From NCBI GenBank assembly GCA_003543135.1, contig DPJG01000025.1, positions 1 to 64,000 on the forward strand: a DNA stretch of 64,000 bases, in the 5' to 3' direction. Under the pieces are notes generated by a model. The model did no database searches. It saw only the letters and a program-made list of their open reading frames with translations, and had not been told where the DNA came from. Origin of the DNA: Rheinheimera sp. (lineage in GTDB: Bacteria > Pseudomonadota > Gammaproteobacteria > Enterobacterales > Alteromonadaceae). This document shows, piece after piece, positions 1,314 to 19,079 of this stretch. Position 1 is the stretch's first letter; each line of letters opens with the position of its first letter. Made by a program: the position numbers and the translations under genes.

Positions 1314-2178
1314 CTCCCCCCCAGCTGATTCACTGTATAGATGCACAGTCCACAGCTTAAACTAATCCATATTTATGTCAACAAAGAATTTATTAATCAA
1401 TTTAATGGATTAATATTACACCACAATCAACCAACTTTTAGGTTGAGAAACCTTGTTTAAATATGAAAAAATATCCATATTAATCAAAATCTTGAGAATG
1501 TCATTGTTCGATATATGTGATGACCAGAACTTCTCAGCCGCATGAATAGCATCCAGTGCTTCTAACTAATTCAAATCGTATTCTAATTTAGAATTATGTC
1601 TTATAACTTCATAAAAAACCGACACCTAGGGAATAAGATCTTGCAGCATTTGTATTGAACAGAATTCGAATCCGAGGGAGGAATGTTATGAAATTCACTT
1701 AGTTTTTAAAGGTATGTCATTCTGCATATTCGGCGTTGTCGAATTTGGAAGGACGCACAAACCAAGCCTCTTGCAACTATGTCAGCTCAAGTCTCTCAGC
1801 ATGCAAATAGTTCCAACTTCACAGTCCAGTTCGCTAAACAAGCAAGTACGCTAACCATCAAAATTCAAAAAAGTTTTTTACGGGAGTTTTGGTTGGGTGC
1901 GATTCTTGGCCGTCTTGCTAGCGCTCTCTTCCACGTTTCCTCGAAGGGTTGTGCCTCACTTATTCCGATTAAATATTACACCACAATTGCATATTCCATT
2001 TTGGAATATGCAATTAAATATTACCCTCTAAACAAAAAATAAAAAAATCAATCACATATACATTATCAAGACAAAAAAGAGAAAGTCCAAAAAGATATTT
2101 CACAGCTTGATGGCTTCAATTTAGCATTTACCACGTTTGCAACCGTAAACAACTAAACCGAATCGATAAGGACTATTG
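1314..2178. other. AT-rich intergenic region with repeats and a palindrome
   Basis: 865 bp with no credible gene. The 87-codon plus-strand frame at 1779-2042 lacks a ribosome site and has a composition unlike protein. The stretch has a near-direct repeat: GATTAA(A)TATTACACCACAAT occurs around 1409-1427 and 1967-1987. A perfect 14-bp inverted repeat lies at 1985-2015. It may carry control sites for the divergent integrase (left) and the DUF3987-like gene (right). Confidence 0.5.
1985..2015. repeat. Perfect 14-bp palindrome flanked by direct repeats
   Basis: AATTGCATATTCCA (1985-1998), a TTT spacer, and its exact complement TGGAATATGCAATT (2002-2015). The nonamer AAATATTAC occurs immediately on both sides (1971-1979 and 2016-2024). 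No T-run follows, so a terminator is unlikely. A protein-binding dyad or cruciform-type site upstream of the DUF3987-like gene is plausible, but its function is unknown. Confidence 0.6.
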
Positions 2179-3699
2179 ATGATGAACATATTTGATGCTC
2201 TGCAAAAGCTGTTAACAGCAACACCCAAACCAACGGAAATCGCGGAGGTGCCAAAAGAACTAGTCAACAACACAGCTTGTTTGGTCGCAAATGACCCAGT
2301 AAATACTGATCAAGCTTCGGAAGAAGATGAATTCGATGCTCTGACGGCTCCATTAACAAACAAAAGCTTGAAGCAGGGTTTTCAGTATCAACTTAACGAT
2401 GTCGTTTTTCCATTGCCAGGTAAGCTCCAAAAATTACTTGATTGTGTCGATCTGTGCTCTGCTCCAGGATTGGCAGGCGCCTTCTGTAGTGAGCTAGCTC
2501 GATACGAGATGCGAATCTTGGAAGAACCGCGCATTATCGCCGCGTTAAATGTATTGGCCATAACAAGATCCAAGCAAGGTCTCTACGAAGGAATGAAATC
2601 TAGCTTTTTTTCCATCGTGGCAGCTTTATCGGCTTGCGGAAAAGAACGCCATCAAGCTTTCCAGCAAAAACTCTTTGATGCAATCTCACTGAACGACGTG
2701 ATCGTAGCGTCGGTAACATCAGGCAAACAAGTTCATGAAGCTCTCGCTTACAATCAAACTCCGGTATTAATTGTCGACGAATGCCACCAACTTTTTAAGG
2801 CAGCCACATTCGGCACAGATTTTGGTGCATTAGATACAATGATGTCGATGATGACCGCCAATGTTGCAAAGTTTCCATTTAAAACCCGACGAGAACTTAT
2901 CGATAGTCTGCGAGCATTAATTGCAAGCCTACAGAAAGATAAATCTCTGATCCCAACTGACAAGGCCATGCTTTCACGTCTGATAGAGTCAGAGAAGAAA
3001 CTGAGCAGGAATGATTGGCAAAACCCTTATTTTGCGTACGTTGGTTATTCAACGCCGATCAACACAGACTTTATTGTCAATACGCAAAATGTAGATTCGG
3101 GGCTGATGGGACGCCCAATTTTCATGCGTGTAGCTGAATATCGGGACGATCTGAATCCCAATAAAGATCTGAATGGTCCAACGGATTCGTTAGTTCAACG
3201 TTTCAAAGCCTGCATTAGCAATAATGGGGCGATTGAAATGTCTGCCGAGGCAGCAGAATTGGTTGGCGAGTTCATCCAATATTTTGAAAGTAATCGGAAT
3301 CATCGAGAATTTGGCGCAATCTACGCCAGAGGGGCTGAGCATGTATTCCGGGTGAGTTCGTTACTGGCTGCCGAGACGCTGGTCATCACCGAAGCAGAGG
3401 TGCTTTATGCGGCTAAGTTGTTTTTACGCAGCCTCGCTTCAATTCAGGAAGTAAAATCCGGCAAAAGCAGAAACTTTTTGTTCCAATCAGCACTGGAAAC
3501 CATTAAAAAGCACGCTGCAGGTAAAAAATTATCAGTTGCAGTGTTGGCTAATAAGCTGATAGCGAGTAATAAGCACATTCGAGCTTATCAGCAAGAAGAA
3601 CGGGACATTGCCAAAATAATGGTTCAACAGGCAATTGACGAAGGTTTTCTGATACTAGAGAACAAACTTGTTCAGTTAGCGGATGCCGACTCACAGTAG
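2179..3699 (+). CDS. DUF3987-like protein (primase/helicase-associated NTPase fold)
   Basis: 506 residues from ATG 2179, with AAGGA six bases upstream; a TTG at 2176 and an ATG at 2182 are alternatives. The N-terminal 60 residues are low-complexity and acidic. The core resembles DUF3987 proteins, which sit in phage and island replication modules. There is a P-loop-like segment at about 149-158 (ALSACGKERH), degenerate against the usual GxxGxGK, and a convincing Walker B with DECH at about 196-203 (VLIVDECH). The C-terminal ~100 residues look like a helical, winged-helix-like tail. It stands alone on the plus strand, divergent from the recombinase at 1-1313 and about 200 bp from the mrr remnant. 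A role in replication of the island is inference from family context. It might also be a defence-associated ATPase. Confidence 0.55.
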   Translation: MMNIFDALQKLLTATPKPTEIAEVPKELVNNTACLVANDPVNTDQASEEDEFDALTAPLTNKSLKQGFQYQLNDVVFPLPGKLQKLLDCVDLCSAPGLAGAFCSELARYEMRILEEPRIIAALNVLAITRSKQGLYEGMKSSFFSIVAALSACGKERHQAFQQKLFDAISLNDVIVASVTSGKQVHEALAYNQTPVLIVDECHQLFKAATFGTDFGALDTMMSMMTANVAKFPFKTRRELIDSLRALIASLQKDKSLIPTDKAMLSRLIESEKKLSRNDWQNPYFAYVGYSTPINTDFIVNTQNVDSGLMGRPIFMRVAEYRDDLNPNKDLNGPTDSLVQRFKACISNNGAIEMSAEAAELVGEFIQYFESNRNHREFGAIYARGAEHVFRVSSLLAAETLVITEAEVLYAAKLFLRSLASIQEVKSGKSRNFLFQSALETIKKHAAGKKLSVAVLANKLIASNKHIRAYQQEERDIAKIMVQQAIDEGFLILENKLVQLADADSQ

Positions 3700-4734: not shown

Positions 4735-5211
4735 TTAATTTTGCGAACGCAACCAGCGTTTGTTGAGTTTATTACGCTCATGTTGTTGCTCGACAAAATA
4801 AGCAGTCCATGGCAACAGATAATCAATTCTGTCATCCAGTACAACCAGATAACCTTCGGCCTCGCACCACAAATGCACTCTATTGTTTGAACCGCGTTTT
4901 TCTGTCCAGATTTTTAAATCTGGCGATTGGTCGTTCTCTATAATTGGCTTTGGCCAGCGCATCCGTTCACACCTGCGTATGTCCGGAATACGTTCAGCTT
5001 CATCCATTCCAGTGCTGATCATATGCCAAAAAGTCGCTGATTTGCCATCATACTCTGGATGACGTTTTAACCCCAAACGTCTCCCTTGGAACATCGGTTT
5101 ACTATCAACAAAATCAGCAGCAAATACTGCATACACTGCCGCAAAATAGCGTTCCCAATTACCTCCATAATCTTCCATAAGCAATAAGGATGGTAGCCAA
5201 TTTAATGTCAT
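4735..5211 (-). CDS. Unrecognised 158-residue protein coupled to DUF3800 gene
   Basis: The ATG at 5211 overlaps the stop of the DUF3800 gene (ATGA), with an AGCGGAG ribosome site about nine bases upstream. A longer frame exists (to 5235) but lies wholly inside the previous gene. The protein is soluble, charged and rich in Trp, Tyr, His and Arg, with no signal peptide or membrane span. Possibly diagnostic stretches are RRLGLKRHPE (44-53), ATFWHMIST (59-67), RRCERMRWPKPIIE (79-92) and YLLPWTAYFVE (131-141). Clustered His/Arg/Trp/Glu residues would fit a small nuclease-like fold, but I cannot assign a family. Coupling to DUF3800 at the end of the SIR2-HerA cluster suggests the two proteins work together. 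Confidence 0.75.
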   Translation of the reverse strand: MTLNWLPSLLLMEDYGGNWERYFAAVYAVFAADFVDSKPMFQGRRLGLKRHPEYDGKSATFWHMISTGMDEAERIPDIRRCERMRWPKPIIENDQSPDLKIWTEKRGSNNRVHLWCEAEGYLVVLDDRIDYLLPWTAYFVEQQHERNKLNKRWLRSQN

Positions 5212-5921
5212 GAAGATGCTCCGCTTCCTTGCCAAATCATCAGGTTAAACTTGTTCTCACGTAGCATTGTATTCAAAGTTAACTTATAGCCACTGCGGTT
5301 TTTTATCCGTTCAATTAGCGCAAGCTTGGCCGAATTAGTTGATAAGCCACGATGTAAATAAGAGAGTGCTCCAATCAGAAGGTCTGCTAATTGCAGCTGT
5401 TCCACCTCGTGAGATTGCACTCGTTGCACACGCTGGATCATTTTGCGCGAGAAATCGTAAGCGTTGTGGCATAACACATCGTGCAACTTTGCAACCTTTT
5501 CATGCCCAAGTGTATCTTTAATATCGATATACACCCGATACTGACAAGTTGGTTCGAATACTACTTTCAATAAGGTAAAGTACATTTTGTAGTACCAGTC
5601 GTCATGGTTCTGACCAAATTGCGCGTGGTTTAACAGCGCCTTATCGGGAACCACCACAGCGCGAAAATGCAGGTCATCGTCATCAAAGAAGTAGTCGACT
5701 AAATCCAGATAAAATTCTTGCTTCCCTGGGCTTACTTTGGTCCATTTAATTTCAAAATCAGCAGCAAGCCCATGCTTTTGCTTTATTTCCCGGATCCTTG
5801 TCGCAATTTCTGTGCGTTTTTCATCAGGACACCAAACCGCCCCTAAAACCATGGCAGTTTGGTTGTCATTCTCTAGGTGACAGGATTCATCACAGTAAAG
5901 GTTGTATGTTGTCGTTGTCAT
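5208..5921 (-). CDS. DUF3800 protein, RNase H-like fold predicted
   Basis: 237 residues. The N-terminus has the family's YCDES motif (residues 9-13). Conserved acidic positions follow in YIDIKD (131-136) and the C-terminal QLADLLIGA (177-185). These arrangements define DUF3800, a family thought to have an RNase H-like fold with clustered metal-binding acids; its activity is not established. It starts 49 bp after the HerA stop and overlaps the next gene by 4 nt, so it is probably co-transcribed with SIR2-HerA. DUF3800 genes are common in defence islands and mobile elements. A nuclease role in defence is inference. Confidence 0.85.
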   Translation of the reverse strand: MTTTTYNLYCDESCHLENDNQTAMVLGAVWCPDEKRTEIATRIREIKQKHGLAADFEIKWTKVSPGKQEFYLDLVDYFFDDDDLHFRAVVVPDKALLNHAQFGQNHDDWYYKMYFTLLKVVFEPTCQYRVYIDIKDTLGHEKVAKLHDVLCHNAYDFSRKMIQRVQRVQSHEVEQLQLADLLIGALSYLHRGLSTNSAKLALIERIKNRSGYKLTLNTMLRENKFNLMIWQGSGASS

Positions 5922-5970
5922 AGATTTCTTTTCTTCAAGATTTTTGATGACATCTGAATTTAACGTACTT

Positions 5971-7704
5971 TCATATCACACGTCGCCAAACGGTCGAGAA
6001 CGATGCACTGCGAGATTCAGGTTTAGCCGTTGGAGTTTTGATTTTAACCGTCATTGGGAACGGAAAATCGACGCCCAATAACAGGGCTTCCCCCTGTCCC
6101 AAAACCGGCAAAAATGACGCCGAACGATGGTCAATGGAGCCTACCGCCTTTTTGACCACTTCTTGGTCTTTCTCGTTGGTTAATCGGTGGACAATCAATG
6201 TGCCGATTTGACTGAGCACATCCTCCGGGATGTCCCTCGGACGCTGGGTGGCAATCACTACATTTAAGCCGTACTTTCGTCCTTCTTTGGCGATATTCCC
6301 AAAAGCATCAAGTGCAAAACGCGAGGATTCATCACCAATCTGTTTGTTTAAAAATTGGTGGGCTTCATCGATGAATACCAGCAATGGTTGGCCGTGATGA
6401 ATAGTGCCGATACGTGCACACGCTAGTAATTTTCTGCCAATTGCATTTACAAGAATCTCTCTGGCATTTGCTTCGAACGGAATGGCTGATAGGTCGAGGC
6501 GGATTATCTGCCGGGAGTTAATAGCACAGAATTGGTCCATTAACGCAGGAATGGTCAGAAGTGTTCTATCACAATCAATCATCCATTTTAAATGTTGATT
6601 GCTGGCCATTGCCTGAATTCTCGAAATCAAATTCATACAATGACCTACGTCATTGTCTGCTCTTCCGCCCCAAAGATCAGGTCGAGGAGCTTGGTTTGTA
6701 CCGCCGTTCGGCCAAACACATTCCTCAATGATCTGTGAAGCAAGCGAGGTAAAAGACCACGGAATTTGGCTTTCAATACTACTGATACTCCTCACCGCAT
6801 TTTCAAAACTAGCCTTTTGCTGACCAGATTTTTGAAAGGTATATGAAGAAGTGTTTATGCTTAAACCATGATTGGGCGTTTGATGATACTGGGTAACCAC
6901 TCTTAAACTTTGAATTGCTGCATCCAGTTTCGGCGCTTGGCTCTGTGCTGACGGTCTTAACAAAGCTCGAATATCTGAATCAGTAAACATCCAGTGTGGA
7001 TATGTCACCTTGTTGGTTGCATTACCATTCGGATGCTCTCCAACATAAAAACTAGTGCAAGGCAGAGCAGAAAACTCACCTGTTGGGTCCAACAGAAGTA
7101 CTTTACCACCAGCCTGATGCACGTTTTCAATCAGGTTCGCCATGGTAAAACTTTTACCACCACCAGTAGAACCCAACACGGCGCAGTGCCTGGCAAACAG
7201 CTTTTCAGGTGTAACATGGATGGTCACTGACGAATCATGGGGCATTTCAGCTATAGGAAGCTGCAACTCATCTTCTCTAGAATTCAGTGTGCCTTCGGCC
7301 AGAATTGACACCAACTTCGGGTGAGCTGCGTAAACTTGCGCGCCAAGTTTTGGATACTGCTTAACCCCTTTGAAGTTATAACCGGTTTCAACATCCACGC
7401 TTACCAACAACTGCACCAATCCAATAGGGTTGTTACTGGGTTTACTGTCATCAAAACCGTCAACACTCAGTCTTTCACCACTTTCCAGCCATACCTTGAC
7501 CACACGCGCCAGAATTGACAGTTGCCCACAATCGATAAACACAAACTCGTTTACTTCGCCAACTGGTAAACGTGTTCCCAAGATCCATGTGTGATCGCCA
7601 GTCCCTGCTTTGGTGAGGTTTATTTTGGCTTCAGTGGCCGACACATCCAGCAAGCTACCTACGCGGCGTTTTGTGTCGTGAGGTGAAAACCAGCCTGTGC
7701 TCAT
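5971..7704 (-). CDS. HerA-type ATPase of SIR2-HerA defence system
   Basis: 577 residues. An N-terminal beta-rich HAS-barrel-like region (about 1-120) precedes a HerA/FtsK-type motor. The Walker A is GSTGGGKS (178-185), Walker B is VFIDEAH (443-449), the sensor stretch is ATQRP (485-489), and HRLTNEKD follows as in HerA/DUF87 proteins. The length fits SIR2-associated HerA proteins. Its start overlaps the SIR2 stop by 4 nt (ATGA), indicating translational coupling. In the described SIR2-HerA systems the two proteins assemble and phage infection triggers NAD+ depletion; that function is transferred here by family and gene pairing. Confidence 0.88.
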   Translation of the reverse strand: MSTGWFSPHDTKRRVGSLLDVSATEAKINLTKAGTGDHTWILGTRLPVGEVNEFVFIDCGQLSILARVVKVWLESGERLSVDGFDDSKPSNNPIGLVQLLVSVDVETGYNFKGVKQYPKLGAQVYAAHPKLVSILAEGTLNSREDELQLPIAEMPHDSSVTIHVTPEKLFARHCAVLGSTGGGKSFTMANLIENVHQAGGKVLLLDPTGEFSALPCTSFYVGEHPNGNATNKVTYPHWMFTDSDIRALLRPSAQSQAPKLDAAIQSLRVVTQYHQTPNHGLSINTSSYTFQKSGQQKASFENAVRSISSIESQIPWSFTSLASQIIEECVWPNGGTNQAPRPDLWGGRADNDVGHCMNLISRIQAMASNQHLKWMIDCDRTLLTIPALMDQFCAINSRQIIRLDLSAIPFEANAREILVNAIGRKLLACARIGTIHHGQPLLVFIDEAHQFLNKQIGDESSRFALDAFGNIAKEGRKYGLNVVIATQRPRDIPEDVLSQIGTLIVHRLTNEKDQEVVKKAVGSIDHRSASFLPVLGQGEALLLGVDFPFPMTVKIKTPTAKPESRSASFSTVWRRVI

Positions 7705-8942
7705 GGCTGGTTCCCCCTAGCAATTACCTGCTCAAACATATTGAGCAATGTTTCTTCTGGGCTAGGTTTATGCCTGTCCGGCAATAAGCTAACAAAGGTG
7801 TCAAAAGTACAATCGACAATCGCTAACCTGGAATCGCCTGCAGTGATGGCATTCATGAACTGAGAGCGAATTTCTGGATTGAATGCACCTTGAGGGTTAA
7901 ACGGATCTTTGGTTGCTGCCATCACCATAATCTCGGAATTGGTTCGCAACGCCATGGTAATCGCATTGTTGAGATGTTTGTCGTTGAACCCAAACCCAAT
8001 GCATAACAGCGCAGTTTTGGGCTTTTGCACAGCTTCTAGGAAAGCGGCCATCATATCCAAATAGGGGGAATCGTAAGAACTTTGGTACTTGGTACTGCTT
8101 GGGTAAATAAACACCGGCTCCCCAGAAGTTTTATCCGCACCCGTTTGCTTGTATACCCCTGCCGTAGTTCTGACCCAATCAATTGAACCATGCACTTTGT
8201 ACAGGTGAATGATATTGGGCAGGTACGCACCGCCCTTCTCTGAGGCTTGCGTTCTGTTCACAATGTCGTAGTGAAACCAAGCAGGGTTAAAACGATGCGG
8301 TTGAGAGAACTCAAAGCCATCAATGACAATCATGCCGGTATTTGATGCAGCAACTTCAAAGGCCAAGTCGTAATTAGTAGTGAATACCTTTAAACGTTTT
8401 TGCTTTGGTGACCGCTTGCCAAGCACGCTAATAAAGCGATTGTGTGCAGGCCATGAATCATGGGGGACCCGGTCGACAAAACTCGTCTCTTTGATGATGT
8501 TTTGTTTTGCGGCAATTAAAAACTCTGAAACTTTACGATGGCGTGTTGAACTTAAATTTTTAAGTGGTAGATACGAATCACACAGGGAAAGCAATAGTTC
8601 AATATCTTGCCTTTGCAATCCGTCTTGCCAAGTCCCAGCAACATCATCATATTTTACCGAGCGTAACACTTCATCAAATCTGGCTACATCTAAATTACGA
8701 CAAGATGCCCAAAGGTCGGCCATACTGGGCGCAACCTTTGGTAGGCCTTGCCTATTAAAGGTTAGCGAAGTGCCAGAGCCTGCAAGGACTACAAGATTTT
8801 CCGCATCAACAAGTTGATTGAGAAAGCGATTCAATGCTGAAGATGCGAACTCATTTGTTTGAGAGTCAATATCGATCCTAGGCGGCAATCCATTCGCATC
8901 TAATTGCTTAAAATCGGATAAAAAAAACGAAACTTCTTTCAT
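7701..8942 (-). CDS. SIR2-domain NADase of SIR2-HerA defence system
   Basis: 413 residues with the sirtuin-like NAD-binding signatures in order: the glycine-rich loop LAGSGTS (53-59), FTTNYD (187-192), KVHGS (249-253) and IGFGFND further on. There is no zinc-ribbon Cys quartet of deacetylase sirtuins, as expected for defence NADases. It starts 27 bp after the hsdS stop and overlaps herA by 4 nt. The pair matches the known SIR2-HerA anti-phage system, where the SIR2 subunit consumes NAD+ on infection. The unusual feature is its position directly behind hsdS in the same orientation. Confidence is high for the domain and good for the system. Confidence 0.88.
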   Translation of the reverse strand: MKEVSFFLSDFKQLDANGLPPRIDIDSQTNEFASSALNRFLNQLVDAENLVVLAGSGTSLTFNRQGLPKVAPSMADLWASCRNLDVARFDEVLRSVKYDDVAGTWQDGLQRQDIELLLSLCDSYLPLKNLSSTRHRKVSEFLIAAKQNIIKETSFVDRVPHDSWPAHNRFISVLGKRSPKQKRLKVFTTNYDLAFEVAASNTGMIVIDGFEFSQPHRFNPAWFHYDIVNRTQASEKGGAYLPNIIHLYKVHGSIDWVRTTAGVYKQTGADKTSGEPVFIYPSSTKYQSSYDSPYLDMMAAFLEAVQKPKTALLCIGFGFNDKHLNNAITMALRTNSEIMVMAATKDPFNPQGAFNPEIRSQFMNAITAGDSRLAIVDCTFDTFVSLLPDRHKPSPEETLLNMFEQVIARGNQP

Positions 8943-8969
8943 ACCATCAATCCTTGTAATTGATACTTT

Positions 8970-10760
8970 TTAAATCATTCCCTGTTCCGCCAAGGCTGAT
9001 GCTATTTCCACTTGTTTGTTTTGGAATTGCTCAAGCTTTTTGAGCAATTCCTGACATATAACCTGAACATCATTAACTTTTGCTAGGATTCTCAACTGCT
9101 CTGACTGCGGTGGCAATGGGATGAGCAAATGTTGGATTTGAATCCTGGATACATTTTTCATTGAGCTGCTTGTACCACCCGCGACTTGAGCATAATAGTG
9201 CCTCGAGAGGAGTGAGTTGTTTACAAGGTTTACGTAATTAACAGCAATATGCTCAGTAAACCTAAAACGTATAATTTTATCACTGAGCATTAATTTAGAT
9301 TGAGCATCAGCAGGTACCACTACAGCACGAGCAACTAATTCTGCGGTGTTAGCACGGGAAATCAAAAAGTCGAAGGGCTTTACTTCAAATTCAACCTTTG
9401 GTTCCAAATGAATTGGAAGAGCTTTATTTTCAGTTTCATTGTACGCCCCCCATGTCACAGCACTAACCTTAAGCACTCCCCACTTTCCTGACTCACGTGG
9501 ATAATTTTCACATTGTGGACTCCAACCAGCTTCAGAACCTAAAGAAAGCTCATCTAACCTGCACCATTCCCACCCATTCGGCAGTTCAAACGGTTTTTCG
9601 GCGTCCGTGATTGGGGGGAGTGGTTTTTGTTTTTTGATTTTGCCTGCTTTGACGAGGGCTTCTTTTTCTTTGGCGATGCGTTTTAGGAGTTCGCTGGCTG
9701 GCTCGTCGGTTGGGTCTTGTTTGACGAGTTTGCCCATGACTGCGAGTTGCAGGATGGTTTGCTTTAAGGCGTCGATGCTGTATTCGGTGGTGAATAGCGT
9801 GTCGAAATGCTCGGATAAGCGCTGCCAGTTGCTGGCCAATTCGCCGGCGTTGGCGCTATCTACCAAGGTTTGTAACAAGGTATCCACCAGCTGGTTATGG
9901 GCGTCGATGCTTTGGTAGCTTTGTTGTTCTAGTTGATCGCAAAGTGCCATCAGCTCTTCGACTTTGTCAGCAATTCTAAATTGCTCTTCTAGAGGAGGGA
10001 GGGCTATTGGGAAATTACGCAGCATGTTCAATGAAACAAACGCCTGCACGCCTCCTGCCGATTGCTCTTTTAAATGAACAGTCGCGAACTTTAAAAAAGT
10101 TAAAAGGAATTCACCACTCAACTTAATTCCCGATATGCATTTAAATAGAGCGACATTTTTTATGCTGAACTGTCGGTCTGTCTTTACAACAACTGGATTG
10201 CCAATTGTGCCAATCATGGCCATCAGAACATCACCCTTAGCTACTGATGACCTCTCAGATATTTTTGAATGATCTTCTCCGGATATAAAATTTACATTTT
10301 CGAAATCAATCTGATCACACACCAGATTTTTACTAGTCACAAGAGGATATCCGCTGTCTACATATTTAGGTGTGTCGTGGGTTCCGTCACGGACGTCATA
10401 GATTTCGCCAAGTCGACTCCAACACCAATTTAAGGGTATGTTGAAAGATCTATCACTTTCATCGACAGGCAGTAATTGCTTATTCTTCTTCAAATCACCG
10501 CGTTTAACCAAAGCCTCTCGTCGGTCGATGATCTTTTTTAACAGCTCACTCGCGGGCTCATCATTCGGATCTTGCGGCACCAATTTCCCACGTACCGCCA
10601 GCTCTAAAATCAATTCACGCAGCTTTTTAATGCCGGTGAGTTCAATCTTGTTATTGCTGCCACGGCCTGCAGTGCTTTTAGCTGTTTGCGCACTGGTCCA
10701 AAGGTCTAAGTGCTGGACAATCAGCTGTTCAGCATCAACTACTTGCTTATCAACAGCCAT
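8970..10760 (-). CDS. hsdS: Type I restriction-modification specificity subunit S
   Basis: 596 residues with two target-recognition domains. Each is preceded by a repeated conserved block: GKLVPQDPNDEPASELLKKI (about 55-77) and GKLVKQDPTDEPASELLKRI in the middle. These blocks and the coiled-coil regions near 265-300 and at the C-terminus set the spacing between half-sites and dock HsdM. Recognition domain 1 is about 105-260, domain 2 about 390-545. The domains are AT-rich, whereas the central conserved block (about 9600-9960) is visibly richer in G+C, which fits shuffling of recognition domains. It starts 3 nt after the hsdM stop. The DNA target cannot be read from sequence. Confidence 0.93.
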   Translation of the reverse strand: MAVDKQVVDAEQLIVQHLDLWTSAQTAKSTAGRGSNNKIELTGIKKLRELILELAVRGKLVPQDPNDEPASELLKKIIDRREALVKRGDLKKNKQLLPVDESDRSFNIPLNWCWSRLGEIYDVRDGTHDTPKYVDSGYPLVTSKNLVCDQIDFENVNFISGEDHSKISERSSVAKGDVLMAMIGTIGNPVVVKTDRQFSIKNVALFKCISGIKLSGEFLLTFLKFATVHLKEQSAGGVQAFVSLNMLRNFPIALPPLEEQFRIADKVEELMALCDQLEQQSYQSIDAHNQLVDTLLQTLVDSANAGELASNWQRLSEHFDTLFTTEYSIDALKQTILQLAVMGKLVKQDPTDEPASELLKRIAKEKEALVKAGKIKKQKPLPPITDAEKPFELPNGWEWCRLDELSLGSEAGWSPQCENYPRESGKWGVLKVSAVTWGAYNETENKALPIHLEPKVEFEVKPFDFLISRANTAELVARAVVVPADAQSKLMLSDKIIRFRFTEHIAVNYVNLVNNSLLSRHYYAQVAGGTSSSMKNVSRIQIQHLLIPLPPQSEQLRILAKVNDVQVICQELLKKLEQFQNKQVEIASALAEQGMI

Positions 10761-10763
10761 GCC

Positions 10764-12233
10764 TTACTCCTTGCCACTCAGTGCAGCTGCCAAAATGGCT
10801 TTAAGCTGGTCACGTAGTTGCTGGATGTCGGCTTGTTGCTGTTGATATTGCGCCAATAATTCGTCCGGGCAATGGCTTTGGGTTGCCACTACATGTGGAT
10901 TTTTGCAGTCGAGGTTAAAGTTGCGGGCGCGAATATCATCGACACTGACTTTCCAGGCCTGAGCGTGTTCGGTGCGGCTGGCAAAGCCATCGCTTTCACT
11001 GCCCCACCAGGCGGCTAAGCCCTCTAATTCTTCGACTTTCATCGGCCGGGTTTTGCTGTAGTTTTTGACGCCTTCTGGGTATTGGTGCTCGTAAAACCAA
11101 ATCTGCTCGGTGGCTTTGCCTTTGGTGAAAAACAGCAGGTTGGTTTTGATGCCGGTATAAGGGTTAAATACACCATTAGGCAGACGGACGATGGTGTGCA
11201 GGTTGCACTTGGTCAATAAGTCTTCTTTTAAGCGCGACTTCATGCCCTCGCCAAATAAAAAGCCATCTGGCAGCACCACGGCGGCGCGGCCACCGTCTTT
11301 GAGTAAATGAATAATCAGCGCCATAAACAAATCGGCGGTTTCGCGGGTGCGAAAGGCGGCTGGAAAGTTGGTTTCAATGCCGTCTTCTTCCATACCACCA
11401 AATGGCGGGTTAGTGACGATGACATCCACCCGTTCACGCGGGCCCCAGCTAATCAGCGGGCGGGCCAGCGTGTTGTCATGGCGAATGTTAAACGGCACTT
11501 CAATACCGTGCAAAATCATGTTGGTGGTGGCCAGCATGTGCGGCAATGGTTTTTTCTCCACACCGGCGATGCTTTGCTGAAGCGTTTGTTCGTCTTCTGC
11601 GGTTTTTACATAGCGGGCGCGTTTGTGCTCGATGGTGCAGGTTAAAAAGCCGCCGGTACCACAAGCCGGGTCTAGTACTCTGTCGTCCAGTTTTGGGTCA
11701 ACCATCCGCACCATAAATTCGGTGATGGGGCGTGGTGTGTAAAACTCACCCGCGTTACCGGCGTTTTGTAAATCACGCAGCAGCTGTTCGTACATATCGC
11801 CAAACAGGTGACGTTCTTGCGCTTTGTTAAAGTCGATACCTTCCTGGATTTTGTTGATGACCTGGCGCAGTAACTGGCCAGATTTCATGTAGTTGTAGGC
11901 ATCTTCAAATACGCTTTTAATGACAAAAGCACGGGCGTCTTCGCCTTTTGGCACTAAGGTTTGCAGCGCTGGGAATAAATCGTTATCGACGAAGTCTTTC
12001 AGCGTATCACCTGTCATGCCTTCCGGGTTTGCTGCCCAAGTCCGCCAGCGGTATTTTTCTGGAATAGGCGATTGATAGTCGTCCTGCATCAACTCCCATT
12101 CTTGTTCTTTGTCATCGTAGATTTTTAAGAACAGCATCCAAACAAGCTGACTTAAGCGCTGCGCGTCACCGTCGACACCCACGTCTTTACGCATGATGTC
12201 CTGAATGGATTTGATGGTAGAGCTAATTGACAT
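10764..12233 (-). CDS. hsdM: Type I restriction-modification methyltransferase subunit M
   Basis: 489 residues. An N-terminal helical HsdM_N region (1-140) precedes an N6-adenine methyltransferase domain with SAM-binding DPACGTGGF (188-196) and catalytic NPPF (275-278). The HsdM signature AGEFYTPRPI sits just before it (161-170). It methylates adenine in the target chosen by HsdS and is also part of the restriction complex. The ATG at 12233 follows AGAGG. It is the middle gene of hsdR-hsdM-hsdS: 69 bp after hsdR and 3 nt before hsdS. All catalytic motifs look intact. Confidence 0.95.
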   Translation of the reverse strand: MSISSTIKSIQDIMRKDVGVDGDAQRLSQLVWMLFLKIYDDKEQEWELMQDDYQSPIPEKYRWRTWAANPEGMTGDTLKDFVDNDLFPALQTLVPKGEDARAFVIKSVFEDAYNYMKSGQLLRQVINKIQEGIDFNKAQERHLFGDMYEQLLRDLQNAGNAGEFYTPRPITEFMVRMVDPKLDDRVLDPACGTGGFLTCTIEHKRARYVKTAEDEQTLQQSIAGVEKKPLPHMLATTNMILHGIEVPFNIRHDNTLARPLISWGPRERVDVIVTNPPFGGMEEDGIETNFPAAFRTRETADLFMALIIHLLKDGGRAAVVLPDGFLFGEGMKSRLKEDLLTKCNLHTIVRLPNGVFNPYTGIKTNLLFFTKGKATEQIWFYEHQYPEGVKNYSKTRPMKVEELEGLAAWWGSESDGFASRTEHAQAWKVSVDDIRARNFNLDCKNPHVVATQSHCPDELLAQYQQQQADIQQLRDQLKAILAAALSGKE

Positions 12234-12302
12234 GAAAACCTCTGTTTAGTGGCCTGCAGCACTGAATGTGGGGAAGCTGCAGGCAAAAACCAGCATCAGC
12301 CT

Positions 12303-14708
12303 TTAGGCGGATTGCTGGTCTGAATACAATTGTTGTTCTAAATCCTGCACGGCTTGCTGGTATGCGGCTTTGCCGCCAAAGGCATTCAGCAGTTCCATGG
12401 GGGCGCCCATTTTATCAAAGGGCGGTAACAGCAGGATTTTCATTTCTTCGATATGTTCAATGCCGGTATCGGCATATTTATCAAGCAGGGATTCCAGCAC
12501 CTGACGGGCCGCGCCTTGATATTTGGTAAAGTAATTGCGCTTTTTCACGCTGTTGGCCCGCTCTCGACGTGTGAGCGGCGGCTGATCGTACACCAAATGG
12601 CTAATAAGGTCGAAGGCATCTAAATCCGCACCGTTCTTGGCCTTCACTTCACTGTGCAAGTCTTCCCAAACCACGCCTTGCTCGGCCAAAGTCTGGATGA
12701 TGTGTTGCTTACGCTCAGCGGCTGTCCAGTGTTTAAAGAAGTCCTGCAATGTTGCGTATTGTTTTTTCACCGTTTGACGGGTGAAGTCGGTCAGTGATTC
12801 TGTGATCAACCTGCCATCTGGACCTAAATGCTGTACCCGTTTACCAATGACGGTGAACTGTACGCCTTTGACGTAGAACTTTTTAGCGGGCTCGCCTGGC
12901 GGGTCGAGAATAATGGGCGGCTGATATGGTGGTGTGGGTTCTTCAATGCCGCTATTATCAGAGCCATCCCCACCAATAGGTTTTGGCGTATCACCACCGA
13001 TAATCTCCGGTGGCTCTGGGTCATCCCCGGGTTTTGGTTGATAGATTTGAACCGGATCACCGTCAAAGGCTGGGTCGGCAAAAAGTTCGGTGGCTTTTTT
13101 GAAGTCCATAATGGTAAACCAGAGCTTGTCGTAGTCTTCATCAATGCGGGTGCCACGACCGATGATTTGCTTAAACTCGGTCATCGACTGAATGCGCTGG
13201 TCCAGCACCACGAGCTTACAGGTTTTAGCATCGACGCCGGTGGTCATTAACTTACTGGTGGTGGCAATCACCGGGTACTTTTCTTCAGGGTTAATGAAAT
13301 TGTCGAGCTGCGCTTTGCCCTCTTGATCATCGCCTGTGATGCGCATCACATAGCGATTACTCTCTTTCACGCGCTGTGGGTTTAAATTCACCAAGGCCTG
13401 ACGCATGCGCTCGGCGTGGTCGATGTCATCGCAAAACACGATGGTCTTTTGAAATTCGCCAGTCTTTTGCAGATATTCGGTGATTTGTTTCGCTACCAGA
13501 TAAGTACGTTCATCAAAAACGATATTACGGTCCATATCCTTTTGGTTGTAGATACGGTCTTCAATCAGATTGCCGTGCTTATCGGTTTGCCCTTTGGTGG
13601 GCCGCCAGCCTTGCAGGTCAATATCAAAGTCCATCCGGATAACTTTGTAAGGCGCGAGGAAACCGTCATCAATACCTTGCTTTAACGAGTAGCTGAACAC
13701 CGGCTCGCCAAAATAATGAATATTGCTGACTTCTTCAGTTTCTTTCGGGGTGGCGGTTAAACCGACATGCGTAGCGGACTTGAAATACTCCAGAATTTCG
13801 CGCCAGGCAGAGTCTTCGCGAGCACTGCCACGATGGCATTCGTCGATGATGATTAAATCAAAAAAGTCTGGCGAGAATTCACGGAAGATTTTGTCGGCTT
13901 CTTCAGGCCCGGTAATGGCCTGATAGAGCGACAAGTAAATCTCAAAGGCCTTATTGACGGTGCGATTAGTGATTTTGGTCATCGCCGCGCCAAACGGCTT
14001 AAAGTCGTTGTTTTTGGTTTGGTCGACCAAGATATTACGGTCAGCTAAAAATAGAATGCGTTTTTTCTGCTTGGATTTCCACAGCCGCCAGATGATTTGA
14101 AATGCTGTATACGTTTTACCGGTGCCGGTGGCCATCACCAGCAAAATGCGCTGTTGGCCCTGTGCAACCGCTTCAACCGTGCGGTTTACAGCAACCATTT
14201 GGTAATAGCGCGGGCTACGTCCGGTGCCGTCGTCGTAATACGGGGTATCAACTATCGGCTTTGCCGCTTCGCTGATGCCTTTATATTGGCAGTACCACTG
14301 CCACAGCTGTGCAGGTGATGGAAATTGGTCGTTGGTTAACTCAGATTCAGTTGCGCCACTTAACCCCGTCTTGTCATGAAACAAGAAACCATCGCCATTG
14401 GATGAGAAGACAAACAATACATCCAAGGCTTCGGCGTAGGCCAATGCCTGCTGCATACCGCTGCCAACACTGTGGTTGTTATCTTTGGCTTCAATAACGG
14501 CAATGGGTTGGTTCTTTTGGTGGAATAACACGTAGTCAGCACGGCGCTTTTCGCCCCGACTATGCAAGCGTCCACGCACAATGACACGCCCTGCGGTAAA
14601 GGTGAGTTCTTCCCGAACTTGCGTTTGCAAATCCCAGCCTGCGGCTTGAATGGCGGGGGTAATGAACTTACTGCAAATGTCTCTTTCGCTTAGCGTTTTT
14701 TTGTTCAT
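12303..14708 (-). CDS. hsdR: Type I restriction enzyme translocase/nuclease subunit R
   Basis: 801 residues from ATG 14708. The frame is open upstream to 14780, but a good promoter lies at 14739-14766, so upstream starts would not be transcribed. The N-terminal nuclease domain has D58 and EAK (73-75), the PD-(D/E)xK pattern. Two RecA-like SF2 domains follow, with Walker A ATGTGKT (193-199) and DECH (289-292), then a GTRIDED helicase motif VI-like stretch and a helical C-terminus that docks HsdM. It translocates unmodified DNA and cleaves at collision. It is the first gene of the cluster, and the upstream promoter may drive hsdRMS plus sir2-herA. The size is shorter than EcoKI HsdR (about 1170) but normal for this subgroup. 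Confidence 0.93.
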
Positions 14709-14738
14709 GCGCGCACTTATCCCTATGATCACTCCCTG

Positions 14739-14766
14739 ATTGTATCGAAATATGCCACTTAGGCAA
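14739..14766 (-). promoter_or_regulatory. Sigma-70-like promoter for hsdR cluster
   Basis: On the minus strand, -35 TTGCCT (14766-14761), a 16-bp spacer and -10 TACAAT (14744-14739) place the transcript start near 14732, about 24 bases upstream of the hsdR ATG at 14708. This is the main argument for that start. No comparably clear promoter was seen before sir2, so it may serve all seven genes down to 4735. Confidence 0.55.
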
Positions 14767-14812
14767 TCTGAATGTTCCAAAGCAGAATATTGCTATTTGT
14801 AGATGTACATCG

Positions 14813-14853
14813 ACTTCGTCGGCTTTTGGCACAAAACCCCAATCCGACGAAGT
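14813..14853. repeat. Inverted repeat upstream of hsdR promoter
   Basis: ACTTCGTCGG (14813-14822) and its exact complement CCGACGAAGT (14844-14853), with a 21-bp gap and GTAC on each outer flank. It lies 50-90 bp upstream of the hsdR promoter. It could be a regulator site controlling the restriction cluster or a structured transcript end; no T-run supports a terminator. Confidence 0.4.
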
Positions 14854-15018: not shown

Positions 15019-16005
15019 TTACTTTGTTTTGTTATGCCAATTGTTCGAGTTTTTTCGCTGCCTTTCTTCCACTGCAGTGATTTTAGGCATCAGGGAATTC
15101 AAGAGCCGACGAGCTTCATGCTTAGTCGCTGCGATAACAGATTTCAGTGCCGAGTTTAACTCGTTTATATCTTCGATAAGCTTGTCTCGGATTTGCCGTG
15201 CGAGGCCGATGAATGTCTTCAACTGTTCGAGTTCAGTTTTTCTTTGTTGTAACTCCATTTCCAGTTTCTTGTTTTCTTCTTCTGTCGCTTTCAAAGCAAG
15301 CTGGTTGTGCTGGAGTTTCTGCAGAACAAAGACTTCTTTTCTAAGATGATCACGGCCAGTGACATTTTTCGAGATCCCACGACGGAATCCAATTTTCTGA
15401 AAAACTTCAGCGGCAATATCCTGAAAGCGCGAAAAATGAGGGTTCAGCTGATTTGTTTTCCCATCAATGCCCAGCCCTCTCGTCATTAGGTGGCGAAGAG
15501 GTGCAACACCTTTTTTAAAATCGTAGTTATAGAACTGAACGTGAAAATGAATATTTCGCCGCACTTTACCGGAGAGCGGATCCTCAAAACCTTCATCTAA
15601 ATGCATATCAAAACCAAGCGGTTCAAAACCGAATTCATGTTTTATTTGGTCGGCATAACGTTCGAGCAGATGCGTGAATGCATTCTTCACACGCTCAGAG
15701 CCATTTACACGTTCCAAATGAGCATAAAGCGGCTCTGAAAAAATCAATACATGCTCAAAAAGTGCATTAAAATCACTGCGAACTCGTTTTTTGATTGCAG
15801 TTTGATGCATCAATTCAACGATCAAGAACGCTTCACTACAGGATGTTGCGTTATGACGGTAGCAACCGAAGTTGTTGTGTGACAAAGAGGAAATTACATT
15901 GACTGAATTTGTAAAACCGTTACGGTGCGCGTAGGCATGATCAAGCTTAGGCAATGCCTTGGGGCGCTTTGAGTACTCTGTGCGCACAGCAACAAAGTTC
16001 TTCAT
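15019..16005 (-). CDS. HUH endonuclease, probable Mob/Pre-like (MobV-type) relaxase
   Basis: 328 residues. The central region carries DMHLDEG followed by RRNIHFHVQF (about 153-176), matching the HxDE...PHxH (HUH) metal-binding motif of plasmid Mob/Pre relaxases. A GKTNQLNPHFSRFQ segment and FRRGISKNVTGRDHLRKE follow, resembling the lysine- and RG-containing block after that motif in Mob_Pre proteins. The last ~100 residues are a predicted coiled coil (EEENKKLEMELQQRKTELEQ), again typical of Mob_Pre. Such enzymes nick at an origin of transfer and would make the island mobilisable by another conjugative element. It is the last gene of a three-gene set. The candidate nicking tyrosine is not identified, and a rolling-circle replication initiator is the main alternative. 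Confidence 0.55.
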   Translation of the reverse strand: MKNFVAVRTEYSKRPKALPKLDHAYAHRNGFTNSVNVISSLSHNNFGCYRHNATSCSEAFLIVELMHQTAIKKRVRSDFNALFEHVLIFSEPLYAHLERVNGSERVKNAFTHLLERYADQIKHEFGFEPLGFDMHLDEGFEDPLSGKVRRNIHFHVQFYNYDFKKGVAPLRHLMTRGLGIDGKTNQLNPHFSRFQDIAAEVFQKIGFRRGISKNVTGRDHLRKEVFVLQKLQHNQLALKATEEENKKLEMELQQRKTELEQLKTFIGLARQIRDKLIEDINELNSALKSVIAATKHEARRLLNSLMPKITAVEERQRKNSNNWHNKTK

Positions 16006-17388: not shown

Positions 17389-18897
17389 TCACAGCTCATA
17401 TTTCAGCACTTCGATAGCAGCCTGAAGTGCAGCAAGTTTCGTTGAAACATTCCCCGCATAGACACCCCATGTGATGTCTCCGTCAAGCTCATGGCCCAGA
17501 ACCTGTTTTGCTATATAAGCTGGTACGCCATGAAGTTTGAATTGACTGGCGACTGTGTATCGGCAGCAGTGAAAATCAACCATGATAAATCTCCGTTTTT
17601 CGAGATCTTTATCAATACCTATCCGCGACAATAATGTCCTGTTAAACCACTTTCCAACGCTGGAGCCGATACCGTCCCTCGACTGACGATCAGGACCGCA
17701 AGTTAGATCTGGAAATAGTGAAGTATGGCCGTTGAGGCGAACTTGTCCGACATAATCCAGCAATCCTCGTCGGATCAACTCACTATGTATTGGAATGTAG
17801 CGGTTTGAGTTTTCAGTTTTTAATCGATGATTTGATAGGTCAAAAAACCAAACGCCATTCTCATTTCGCACATCACGTAACTGAAGGCCTGCGATCTCAT
17901 TCAATCGCATCCCTGAGTAAAGCGCTATTGCCGGCAACCAGTTTGCTGCGTCACGAAATTCAATCGCTTCCAGTTTGTGCTGAGGTTGATAGGAAAGAAT
18001 GGCTGATACCTCCCGCTCATCAAAAGCTCTTCGCCGCATCTGAGTTCGAGAGTCCATTTTCAGCAAGGTCCCTGTAAACGGATTTTTTGTGAGTAGCTGA
18101 CGTTGTTCAACAAGCCAATCACAAAATGTAGACATGTTTGTCAGGTACTTATTCACCGATTTGACGGATAACAGGCCGCCCGTACCGCCCACATTCTTTC
18201 TGCCTGATGTCAGAGTGAGAATTCTGCTTTTTACTATCTGCGATTGTGAATGAGTGAGTAACCGCACATCAAATCCAGCCCCGAGCACCTCAGTAAGAAA
18301 ACCTAATGATGTGCGGTATTGCTGCTGCGCACTCATACCGACCTCGCGGAATTTACTGTCATAAAACTGTTGAACACAGCGCTCCAGGCGCATCTCGGCT
18401 CGTTTTGGGGGATTTTTTGATGCTAACTGAGGCGTGGTAACGGAAAGCGGCGTGAGCTGCTGTAGATTGGTTTGGTGGAGGATTTGATTAAGTAGTGTGA
18501 TCAGAGGATCGAGTTCAACCTGCTGAGGTTTGAGCTGTGCAGTTGAAATCTCACCACCACCTGGGCGTTCGAGTCGAAGAGCTGTGTAGCTGCAGCTTAA
18601 CAGCTGCAAAAATTGTGTTTTAAACCACGACCTGAATGGAACCCTGTTATGTGTTATGCCCCCCACTCCAACATCAACTACTAGGAATGGATAGCTACTA
18701 GCGATACGTTTTAGATGCGTAATAAGGTAACGGGATAATAAAAGTGCATCATCAGGATCAGATGTTTTTAGTGATGCAACGAAGTGATCGTTTGTCTGAG
18801 GCTGTTTGGCTAAACGCTCGAACTCCCGAAACCGGACTCGAAAATAGTAATTTTTTGACGCAGGAACTCGGTATAAACAAGAGGAAAAAGACTGCAT
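17389..18897 (-). CDS. Tyrosine recombinase (integrase) at tRNA-Ser
   Basis: 502 residues from ATG 18897, with GGGGGT about five bases upstream; the frame is open to 18945 but only this start has a ribosome site. The N-terminus (LYRVPASKNYYFRVRF) is of the kind found in large phage/island integrases. The catalytic domain is complete: box I arginine in YSGMRLNEIAGL, a lysine in HRLKTENSNRYIPIH, HCCR (HxxR), then GHE and the nucleophile in WGVYAG. It probably drives site-specific integration into the adjacent tRNA-Ser gene, whose 3' end lies about 90 bp upstream. It is homologous to the recombinase at 1-1313. Confidence 0.92.
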   Translation of the reverse strand: MQSFSSCLYRVPASKNYYFRVRFREFERLAKQPQTNDHFVASLKTSDPDDALLLSRYLITHLKRIASSYPFLVVDVGVGGITHNRVPFRSWFKTQFLQLLSCSYTALRLERPGGGEISTAQLKPQQVELDPLITLLNQILHQTNLQQLTPLSVTTPQLASKNPPKRAEMRLERCVQQFYDSKFREVGMSAQQQYRTSLGFLTEVLGAGFDVRLLTHSQSQIVKSRILTLTSGRKNVGGTGGLLSVKSVNKYLTNMSTFCDWLVEQRQLLTKNPFTGTLLKMDSRTQMRRRAFDEREVSAILSYQPQHKLEAIEFRDAANWLPAIALYSGMRLNEIAGLQLRDVRNENGVWFFDLSNHRLKTENSNRYIPIHSELIRRGLLDYVGQVRLNGHTSLFPDLTCGPDRQSRDGIGSSVGKWFNRTLLSRIGIDKDLEKRRFIMVDFHCCRYTVASQFKLHGVPAYIAKQVLGHELDGDITWGVYAGNVSTKLAALQAAIEVLKYEL

Positions 18898-18937
18898 AGT
18901 ACCCCCATTGGTGGATGAGGGTTGGGGTAAAATAAAA

Positions 18938-18982
18938 AACCCCACGATGTCACTTGGAAATATCCAGTAAAATCATGGGGTT
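18938..18982. repeat. Inverted repeat between integrase and tRNA-Ser
   Basis: AACCCCA (18938-18944) and TGGGGTT (18976-18982) flank 31 bp between the integrase start and the tRNA 3' end (CCA at 18990). The position fits recombinase binding near an attachment core or an autoregulatory site; the arms are short. Confidence 0.35.
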
Positions 18983-18989
18983 ATGGTAT

Positions 18990-19079
18990 TGGCGGAGAGA
19001 GAGGGATTCGAACCCTCGTTAGGGGTTAACCTAAACACACTTTCCAGGCGTGCGCCTTCAGCCACTCAGCCATCTCTCC
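18990..19079 (-). tRNA. tRNA-Ser (GGA anticodon)
   Basis: The 90-nt minus-strand gene has a class II long variable arm, a GGTTCGAATCC T-loop and a CTGGAAA anticodon loop (GGA). The seven-base acceptor GGAGAGA pairs with TCTCTCC, followed by discriminator G and encoded CCA. It is intact despite the island beside its 3' end, as expected when integration restores the tRNA end. Confidence 0.97.

What the first reader, a model, noticed from the sequence alone, without database searches (positions are those of the whole stretch)
4735..14766. Seven-gene defence cluster joining type I RM and SIR2-HerA with DUF3800 and an unknown partner
Seen: seven minus-strand genes (hsdR, hsdM, hsdS, sir2, herA, DUF3800, a 158-residue gene) run with gaps of 69 or fewer bp and three 4-nt or smaller junctions. 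One promoter lies ahead of hsdR. Known: RM and SIR2-HerA are separate anti-phage systems, one cutting foreign DNA and one depleting NAD+. Inference: sharing a transcript may link them, so RM clears most invaders while SIR2-HerA acts as a backup when restriction fails.
Basis: partly seen in the sequence, partly recalled or inferred. Interest (0 to 1): 0.75.

Follow-up and report, generated by a model that had tools for sequence, protein, structure and literature searches.

The report
Restriction operon carrying two defence modules
A DNA-cutting immune operon on a mobile island carries two extra antiviral gene pairs in one row, and the pieces turn up plugged into unrelated cutting operons elsewhere, which suggests such operons serve as carriers for backup defences.

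Summary
In detail: seven intact minus-strand genes (hsdR, hsdM, hsdS, sir2, herA, DUF3800, a 158-residue gene), gaps 69, 3, 27, -4, 49, -4 bp. They are an EcoAI-type type I restriction-modification (RM) operon plus two known modules: SIR2-HerA (Nezha/GAO_19 kind) and PADLOC candidate PDC-M04A/B. The 'unknown partner' is a homologue of phage P1 RlfB; the DUF3800 protein is predicted to fold like RNase HII. The cluster sits on an island in tRNA-Ser with a 20-bp repeat at each end. I did not find the exact seven-gene order elsewhere, but its halves recur: in sampled genomes, 7 of 22 SIR2-HerA loci and 5-6 of 20 M04A loci (window counted in both) lie in the same gene run as type I RM genes, against 0 of 16 Shedu loci. 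The closest SIR2-HerA relatives (64-75% identical HerA) sit in RM operons whose HsdR is only 26-31% identical, so the module moved between unrelated RM backbones. In viral contigs the link is rare (1 of 62). RM operons with embedded defence genes are already known (DarTG2, TgvAB, PrrC), so this is a new variant of a known kind. Backup or guard behaviour is plausible but untested.

The parts
12303..14708 (-). hsdR, EcoAI-type type I restriction subunit
   Evidence: NF046051 1206 bits over cut-off 550; Pfam HSDR_N, ResIII, EcoEI_R_C; D..ExK, GTGKT, DECH motifs
10764..12233 (-). hsdM, N6-adenine methyltransferase subunit
   Evidence: Pfam N6_Mtase 1.6e-80 and HsdM_N; DPACGTGGF and NPPF motifs
8970..10760 (-). 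hsdS, specificity subunit
   Evidence: Pfam Methylase_S 1.4e-15; PADLOC Specificity_I full length
7701..8942 (-). sir2, NADase-type SIR2 of the SIR2-HerA module
   Evidence: Pfam SIR2_2; PADLOC SIR2 591.9 bits; homologous to SIR2 chains 8yhx, 8j4u, 8w9l; TTNYD and HGS motifs, N190 and H251
5971..7704 (-). herA, ATPase of the SIR2-HerA module
   Evidence: PADLOC HerA 930.8 bits; solved HerA relatives; Walker A at 178 and B at 444
5208..5921 (-). DUF3800 gene = PDC-M04A, RlfA-like, predicted RNase HII fold
   Evidence: PADLOC PDC-M04A 335.6 bits; AlphaFold2 pLDDT 89.3; the 22 Foldseek hits with E up to 0.001 are all RNase HII/H2, best 6.6e-6
4735..5211 (-). 158-aa partner = PDC-M04B, RlfB-like
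   Evidence: PADLOC PDC-M04B 243.9 bits; P1/P7-type RlfB/RapB 42-43% identity in 8 of 9 phage records; model pLDDT 92.5, no significant fold match
17389..18945 (-). tyrosine integrase of the island that carries the cluster
   Evidence: Pfam Phage_integrase; beside tRNA-Ser
18990..19009 (.). 20-bp attachment core in the 3' end of tRNA-Ser, repeated at G000:C21:1244-1263
   Evidence: main homology with 12 congeners starts at 18990 or within about 75 bp of it

Best explanation
The cluster is one mobile-island operon in which a type I RM system carries two plug-in defence modules. Step 1 (family knowledge): HsdRMS methylates host DNA and cuts unmethylated phage DNA. Step 2 (family knowledge; catalytic motifs present here): the SIR2-HerA complex depletes NAD+ when a phage gets past restriction, stopping the infected cell. 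Step 3 (inferred from predicted fold): the RlfA-like protein, an RNase HII-fold nuclease, works with its small partner as a third layer acting on nucleic acid. The modules are autonomous units that were captured by the RM operon and gain from its expression and transfer; any coupling to RM is functional rather than through contacts specific to one Hsd family, because unrelated RM backbones carry the same module.
For: Seven tightly packed genes without disruption. hsd genes in the same-strand run of 7 of 22 SIR2 loci (all 22 with HerA next door) and 5 of 20 M04A loci, 6 of 20 with L132, the window counted in both; control Shedu 0 of 16; Fisher one-sided p 0.0135 and 0.041. Embedding between hsd genes: L006 hsdS-sir2-herA-198 aa-hsdR, L023 hsdM-sir2-herA-hsdS-hsdR, L122 hsdM-hsdS-M04A-M04B-hsdR, L121 hsdM-M04A-M04B-hsdS. 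Same module in unrelated backbones: window, L006, L089 share 54-70% SIR2 and 64-75% HerA identity but 26-31% HsdR; window and L096 share 59% HsdR but 26% HerA. On the HsdM tree the SIR2-HerA and M04 labels need at least 4 changes each. Autonomy: M04AB in P1 and in an E. coli chromosome with no hsd gene annotated within 10 kb.
Against: Full order seen once only. 15 of 22 SIR2-HerA and 14 of 20 M04A loci have no type I RM in the run. In viral contigs 1 of 62 SIR2 loci has it in the run (L186); one further contig (L151/L161) has an HsdR-like gene (just under my threshold) and hsdS 6-9 kb downstream. Of 23 viral M04A loci 1 has hsdS next to it. One control family with 16 loci, so the statistics are modest; leaving out the window gives 6 of 21 and 4-5 of 19. 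A Shedu locus (L108) has a type ISP-like protein about 5 kb away, which the type I profiles do not count. No expression, NADase or phage data. M04A nuclease activity rests on fold and conserved acids only.
Confidence: 0.62

Rival explanations
1. Guard model: SIR2-HerA (and perhaps RlfAB) is switched on when phage anti-restriction proteins block the Hsd complex, as PrrC does in EcoprrI.
For: PrrC sits inside a type IC RM locus and fires when EcoPrrI is inhibited by T4 Stp (PMC12707154, passages). L089 carries an AAA_13 protein (the Pfam family that I recall as including PrrC) between hsdS and hsdR, and SIR2-HerA after hsdR.
Against: The module sits with Hsd families whose HsdR is only 26-31% identical, which does not suit a contact with one Hsd complex; 15 of 22 SIR2-HerA loci have no type I RM in the run.
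Confidence: 0.15
2. Product-coupling model: DNA ends or translocation products made by HsdR load HerA and thereby activate SIR2.
For: Partners beside SIR2-HerA share DNA cutting rather than ancestry: type I HsdR, type ISP enzyme (L003), Mrr-type (L025), McrBC and a restriction endonuclease as annotated on two plasmids. HerA-DUF4297 takes dsDNA through the HerA pore (PMC12198126, passages).
Against: The trigger of SIR2-HerA is listed as unclear in the same paper. 15 of 22 loci lack type I RM genes in the run; of eight plasmid neighbourhoods read, three (L014, L015, L016) show no annotated restriction gene directly beside SIR2-HerA.
Confidence: 0.13
3. Passive stacking: unrelated defence genes accumulate in islands and the shared strand and small gaps have no functional meaning.
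For: Island setting. EcoAI-type hsd operons hold other defence-type genes in the same row in other genomes: AAA_21, GmrSD, SIR2_2, HipA-like, KwaB-like. GC3 differs between hsdRM (56-58%) and hsdS to M04B (38-45%). The link is rare in viral contigs.
Against: Whenever a type I hsd gene lay within 8 kb it was in the same-strand run (7 of 7 SIR2, 5 of 5 M04A loci); modules lie between hsd genes in several loci; Shedu 0 of 16.
Confidence: 0.25

Closest known systems
RRDM island: DarTG2 embedded in a type I RM operon of EPEC (PMC12255303, passages)
   Same: Defence module inside a type I RM operon of seven ORFs; authors call the hsdS-hsdR site a potential recombination hotspot
   Different: Module is DarTG2 between hsdS and hsdR with repressor RptR; here SIR2-HerA and RlfAB lie after hsdS. 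I did not search for an RptR-like gene
TgvAB embedded in the VPI-2 type I RM cluster (PMC11411939, passages)
   Same: Two-gene module inside type I RM; the whole cluster protected better against several phages than the module alone
   Different: Module is a GmrSD-like type IV restriction system
SIR2-HerA / Nezha / GAO_19 (PMC11559045, PMC11514479, passages)
   Same: Adjacent SIR2 and HerA genes, conserved catalytic Asn and His; in S. thermophilus the pair is described between or downstream of R/M systems
   Different: Distant subfamily (SIR2 scores 101.6 bits against NCBIfam cut-off 500); here in one run with hsdRMS and M04AB
PADLOC candidate PDC-M04A/B and phage P1 rlfA/rlfB
   Same: Same gene pair, same order
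   Different: The P1 pair follows kilA and repL and is listed as possibly lytic replication, non-essential (PMC10695390, one passage); here in an RM operon
PrrC in EcoprrI (PMC12707154, passages)
   Same: Effector carried by a type I RM locus
   Different: tRNA nuclease with a known RM-inhibition trigger; no PrrC-type match among the window's seven proteins

Membership tests
Type I RM, EcoAI family | HsdR over the curated cut-off with nuclease and motor motifs | tested here: met
   NF046051 1206.3 bits, cut-off 550; motifs
Type I RM, EcoAI family | HsdM and HsdS present in the operon | tested here: met
Type I RM, EcoAI family | methylates and restricts a bipartite site | not testable with these tools
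   needs methylome and restriction assay
SIR2-HerA (Nezha/GAO_19) | adjacent sir2 and herA genes related to the solved complexes | tested here: met
SIR2-HerA (Nezha/GAO_19) | catalytic Asn and His of the NADase, Walker A and B of HerA | tested here: met
   residues needed in V. cholerae are N168 and H227 (PMC11559045, passages)
SIR2-HerA (Nezha/GAO_19) | over NCBIfam equivalog cut-off | tested here: not met
   SIR2 101.6 of 500 bits, HerA 176.3 of 800 bits: a distant subfamily, so only 'SIR2-HerA-like' by that test
SIR2-HerA (Nezha/GAO_19) | NAD+ depletion on phage infection | not testable with these tools
   none
PDC-M04 / RlfAB | both genes, A before B | tested here: met
   335.6 and 243.9 bits
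PDC-M04 / RlfAB | proven anti-phage activity of the pair | not testable with these tools
   no paper found for 'PDC-M04'
RNase HII | RNase HII fold | tested here: met
   predicted model; Foldseek best E 6.6e-6, TM by query length 0.43-0.55 over the 22 hits with E up to 0.001
RNase HII | sequence family match | tested here: not met
   only PF12686 DUF3800 matched in Pfam: works-like claim only
RM guardian (PrrC, PARIS) | activated by RM inhibition or an anti-restriction protein | not testable with these tools
   none
RM guardian (PrrC, PARIS) | PrrC or AriAB proteins | tested here: not met
   none among the listed Pfam and PADLOC matches of the seven (the PADLOC lists of SIR2, HsdS and HsdM show the best 25 only)

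The most novel reading that the evidence does not exclude
Type I RM operons are a general chassis that arms death effectors: HsdR translocation or cleavage of phage DNA supplies the ends that load HerA and switch on the SIR2 NADase, while the RNase HII-fold RlfA with RlfB removes RNA-DNA hybrids or primers that phage replication needs, so one operon runs three successive layers from one recognition event.
Probability: 0.12. Interest if true: 0.78.

Novelty: new variant of a known kind. Interest (0 to 1): 0.47.

Why it matters
The trigger of SIR2-HerA is listed as unclear in a 2025 paper (PMC12198126, passages). A natural operon in which SIR2-HerA and type I RM travel together, seen repeatedly with unrelated RM families, makes a direct test possible: does restriction, or its failure, switch the NADase on? 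It also gives the P1 genes rlfA/rlfB a defence context and a predicted RNase HII fold, where the one source seen here lists them only as possibly linked to lytic replication.

Tried and rejected
Exact recurrence of the seven-gene order: not found in E. coli complete genomes by DNA of the M04A-to-sir2 part (3 of 5,426 genomes match, over M04A only), nor in the neighbourhoods read. Plasmids were searched with SIR2, M04A and M04B proteins: eight SIR2 neighbourhoods were read of 553 records with a match; no plasmid neighbourhood of M04A or M04B was read. Phages were searched with M04B only. None of the 22 SIR2 and 20 M04A genome loci other than the window shows it. The one scan of 84,980 genome contigs used stiff 8-residue patterns and returned one relative; it is not evidence of absence. 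Literature: 'PDC-M04' gave no paper; 'DUF3800' with 'restriction-modification' gave one unrelated paper; HerA+SIR2+HsdR gave two papers. The library lacks bioRxiv and most subscription papers; the Payne et al. 2024 preprint on embedded defences was seen only as a reference and not read.

Promoter scan as proof of a single transcript: dropped, fewer sites than shuffles. Idea that hsdRMS-M04AB was the ancestral unit into which sir2-herA was inserted (window against L021): not supported, the L021 HsdM lies in a starred branch that leaves out the window's and the intergenic flanks do not match by eye. M04B as a RelE/BECR-like RNase: only a hint, HigB1 at E 0.18. Hits to MADS proteins (mad2, mad5, mad8) score far below the type I RM and HerA models and were not pursued.

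Selections made by me: the 36 SIR2 viral loci read are 36 of the 62 (near-copies and some weak ones dropped by eye); all 62, with the HerA loci, 70 loci in all, were then scanned for hsd genes. Pfam was given 30 proteins from 15 of the 27 fetched EcoAI-type loci. The hsd profiles were built from EcoAI-type operons only (26 HsdR, 19 HsdM, 15 HsdS), with the SIR2-HerA-bearing L046 left out but the SIR2-bearing L049 kept in; they miss distant HsdR (L132, found by Pfam). Several loci are cut by contig ends (for example L109, L120, L126, L132), so their neighbourhoods are seen in part.
Full report
What is there. Seven minus-strand ORFs lie end to end between 4735 and about 14708 (sequence of the left part). 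Their gaps are 69, 3, 27, -4, 49 and -4 bp; sir2/herA and DUF3800/small gene overlap as ATGA. Pfam, NCBIfam and PADLOC name HsdR (EcoAI/FtnUII family, 1206 bits against a cut-off of 550), HsdM, HsdS, a SIR2_2 protein, a HerA ATPase, DUF3800 and PDC-M04B. Active-site motifs are present in HsdR, HsdM, SIR2 and HerA. SIR2 aligns with chains of solved SIR2 entries (8yhx, 8j4u, 8w9l), entries that also hold HerA chains, and HerA aligns with several solved HerAs.

The 'unknown partner'. PADLOC holds the DUF3800 gene and the small gene as a candidate module, PDC-M04A and M04B. In phage records the small gene matches RlfB of P1 and RapB of P7 kinds at 42-43% identity (8 of 9 records; the ninth, a Bifidobacterium phage, at 31.5%). 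A P1 screen lists rlfA and rlfB as 'possibly associated with lytic replication' and non-essential (PMC10695390, one passage). AlphaFold2 models from alignments of 14 sequences are confident (M04A pLDDT 89.3; M04B 92.5). For M04A all 22 Foldseek matches with E of 0.001 or less are RNase HII/H2 (best 6.6e-6, TM by query length 0.43-0.55), and the invariant acids D11, E12, E57, D133, D136, D180 fit a metal-dependent nuclease of that fold (inference). M04B has no significant match (best HigB1 toxin at E 0.18).

The setting. A tyrosine integrase (17389-18945) lies beside tRNA-Ser (18990-19079). In the 12 congeneric genomes searched the main homology to the right flank starts at the tRNA 3' end, 18990, or within about 75 bp of it; one of them, G562, also has weak matches inside the integrase. 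The last 20 bp of the tRNA recur exactly at G000:C21:1244-1263, and in congener G572 the matches to the right flank and to C21 overlap by just those 20 bp (L145 2833-2852), the picture of an empty site. If contigs C21 and C27 adjoin, the island is about 20 kb. GC3 is 56-58% in hsdR and hsdM but 38-45% from hsdS to M04B, so the operon looks like a mosaic.

Does the arrangement recur? SIR2 model PDLC04075 at E 1e-20 or less hit 7 of 369 genomes of the class and 15 of 398 of the phylum (17 places); two places are shared, giving 22 loci, all with HerA next to SIR2. Flanks were fetched and scanned with hsd profiles built from EcoAI-type operons of the order, leaving out the SIR2-HerA-bearing L046. 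Seven of 22 have type I hsd genes in the same-strand run: the window, L022 (R-M-S-SIR2-HerA), L023 (M-SIR2-HerA-S-R), L027 (M-DUF4062 gene-S-SIR2-HerA), L089 (M-S-AAA_13-R-SIR2-HerA), L096 (SIR2-HerA-R-M-S) and L097 (R-M-S-SIR2-HerA). Three more have other restriction or modification genes in the run: L025 Mrr, L092 N6_N4_Mtase with a UvrD helicase, L102 an Eco57I/TaqI-like methylase. Outside the sample, Aquaspirillum serpens (L006) has hsdS, 13 bp, sir2-herA, a 198-aa gene, hsdR, and an Acinetobacter plasmid has hsdR-sir2-herA.

M04A model PDLC04353 at 1e-15 or less hit 20 of 398 genomes. Five of 20 have hsd genes in the run (window, L121, L122, L128, L130), and L132 has hsdR directly downstream, so six. 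L121 also holds DarT and a macro-domain gene after hsdS. L130 has hsdM-207 aa-hsdS-SIR2-hsdR-270 aa-M04A-M04B: RM, a SIR2 protein and M04AB together a second time, but with a SIR2 that has no HerA. In the order, M04B hit 2 of 197 genomes, both in type I RM operons: window, and G389/L021 with hsdR-hsdM-hsdS-M04A-M04B. One viral locus of 23 (L066) shows hsdS-M04A-M04B; some of the 23 start at a contig edge.

Control. Shedu (PF14082) hit 16 of 398 genomes of the phylum; none of the 16 has a type I hsd gene in the run or within 8 kb by the same profiles; one, L108, has a type ISP-like protein about 5 kb away. Fisher one-sided p is 0.0135 for SIR2 and 0.041 for M04A. Without the window the counts are 6 of 21 and 4 of 19 (5 with L132). 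Each locus with an hsd gene within 8 kb had it in the same run (7 of 7, 5 of 5), which is not what loose island neighbourhood gives.

Results against. Of 62 SIR2 loci in viral contigs, one (L186, hsdR-hsdS-hsdM-SIR2, cut by the contig end) has type I RM in the run; one further contig (L151/L161) has an HsdR-like gene just under the threshold and an hsdS about 6-9 kb downstream. Fifteen of 22 genome SIR2-HerA loci and 14 of 20 M04A loci have no type I RM in the run. So the modules look self-sufficient and RM is one common home among others.

Who moved? The window, L006 and L089 share SIR2 at 54-70% and HerA at 64-75% identity, but HsdR at 26-31%; the window and L096 share HsdR at 59% but HerA at 26%. 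On a tree of 31 HsdM proteins the SIR2-HerA label needs at least 4 changes and so does M04; this is counted among labelled rows only, several branches are long, and shuffled labels need as many, so it says the label is scattered, not more. The modules were captured repeatedly by different RM operons (inference).

General cargo. EcoAI-type HsdR hit 25 of 197 genomes of the order, 29 places; 27 were fetched, the other two being the window and L021. Pfam was given 30 neighbouring proteins from 15 of the 27; in ten of these 15 it names a defence-type gene in the row: AAA_15/AAA_21 (L035, L044, L048, L052), GmrSD (L037, L038, L044), SIR2_2 (L049), HipA-like kinase (L043), KwaB-like (L036) and AAA_11/12 helicase-like (L045); in L039, L040, L041, L042 and L054 it did not, or named something else. 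An eleventh of the 27, L046 (= L096), has SIR2-HerA ahead of hsdR. The row around hsdS thus holds different cargo in different genomes.

Compared with the literature. DarTG2 inside a type I RM operon (PMC12255303, passages), TgvAB inside another (PMC11411939, passages), PrrC and the remark that RM systems carry accessory genes thought to be toxins (PMC12707154, passages), and SIR2/HerA 'inserted between' or 'downstream of' R/M systems in S. thermophilus (PMC11514479, passages) show that the kind is known. New here, as far as these searches of one library go (mostly listings), are two modules in one RM operon, the repeated capture of SIR2-HerA by unrelated type I families, M04AB/RlfAB as RM cargo, and the RNase HII fold of its DUF3800 member.

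Mechanism. Shown: gene content, order, motifs, island, recurrence. From family knowledge: restriction by HsdRMS, NAD+ depletion by SIR2-HerA. Inferred: co-transcription, layered backup, nuclease activity of M04A. Most likely the modules are autonomous backups carried by the RM operon; guard and product-coupling models are open and testable.

Noticed in passing
L089 (G902:C1:687000-706000) 13494-14804: An AAA_13 protein (the Pfam family recalled as including PrrC) lies between hsdS and hsdR, with SIR2-HerA after hsdR: perhaps a classical RM guard and SIR2-HerA in one RM operon.
   Followed up: partly
L121 294-6097: A type I RM operon carries M04AB between hsdM and hsdS and DarT plus a macro-domain gene after hsdS.
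   Followed up: partly
L130 1-10037: hsdM-207 aa-hsdS-SIR2-hsdR-270 aa-M04A-M04B: a second RM operon with a SIR2 protein and M04AB, but without HerA.
   Followed up: partly
window 14813-14853: A 10-bp perfect inverted repeat (arms 14813-14822 and 14844-14853) upstream of hsdR, a possible operator.
   Followed up: no
G000:C30:4735-5733: A second N6_Mtase (HsdM-like) gene elsewhere in the same genome.
   Followed up: no
G000:C21:1-375: An ORF open at the contig edge that looks by eye like the C-terminal part of another tyrosine recombinase, inside the far end of the island.
   Followed up: no
window 2176-3699 and 15019-16005: Island ORFs of 507 and 328 aa with no Pfam, NCBIfam or PADLOC match at E 0.001.
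   Followed up: no
L049 6559-8682: EcoAI-type hsdRMS followed by a SIR2_2 gene and an unknown 310-aa gene: possible SIR2 module without HerA.
   Followed up: no
L040 10892-14215: TniQ and a Csy2-like protein downstream of an EcoAI-type hsd operon, suggesting a Tn7-like CRISPR element next door.
   Followed up: no
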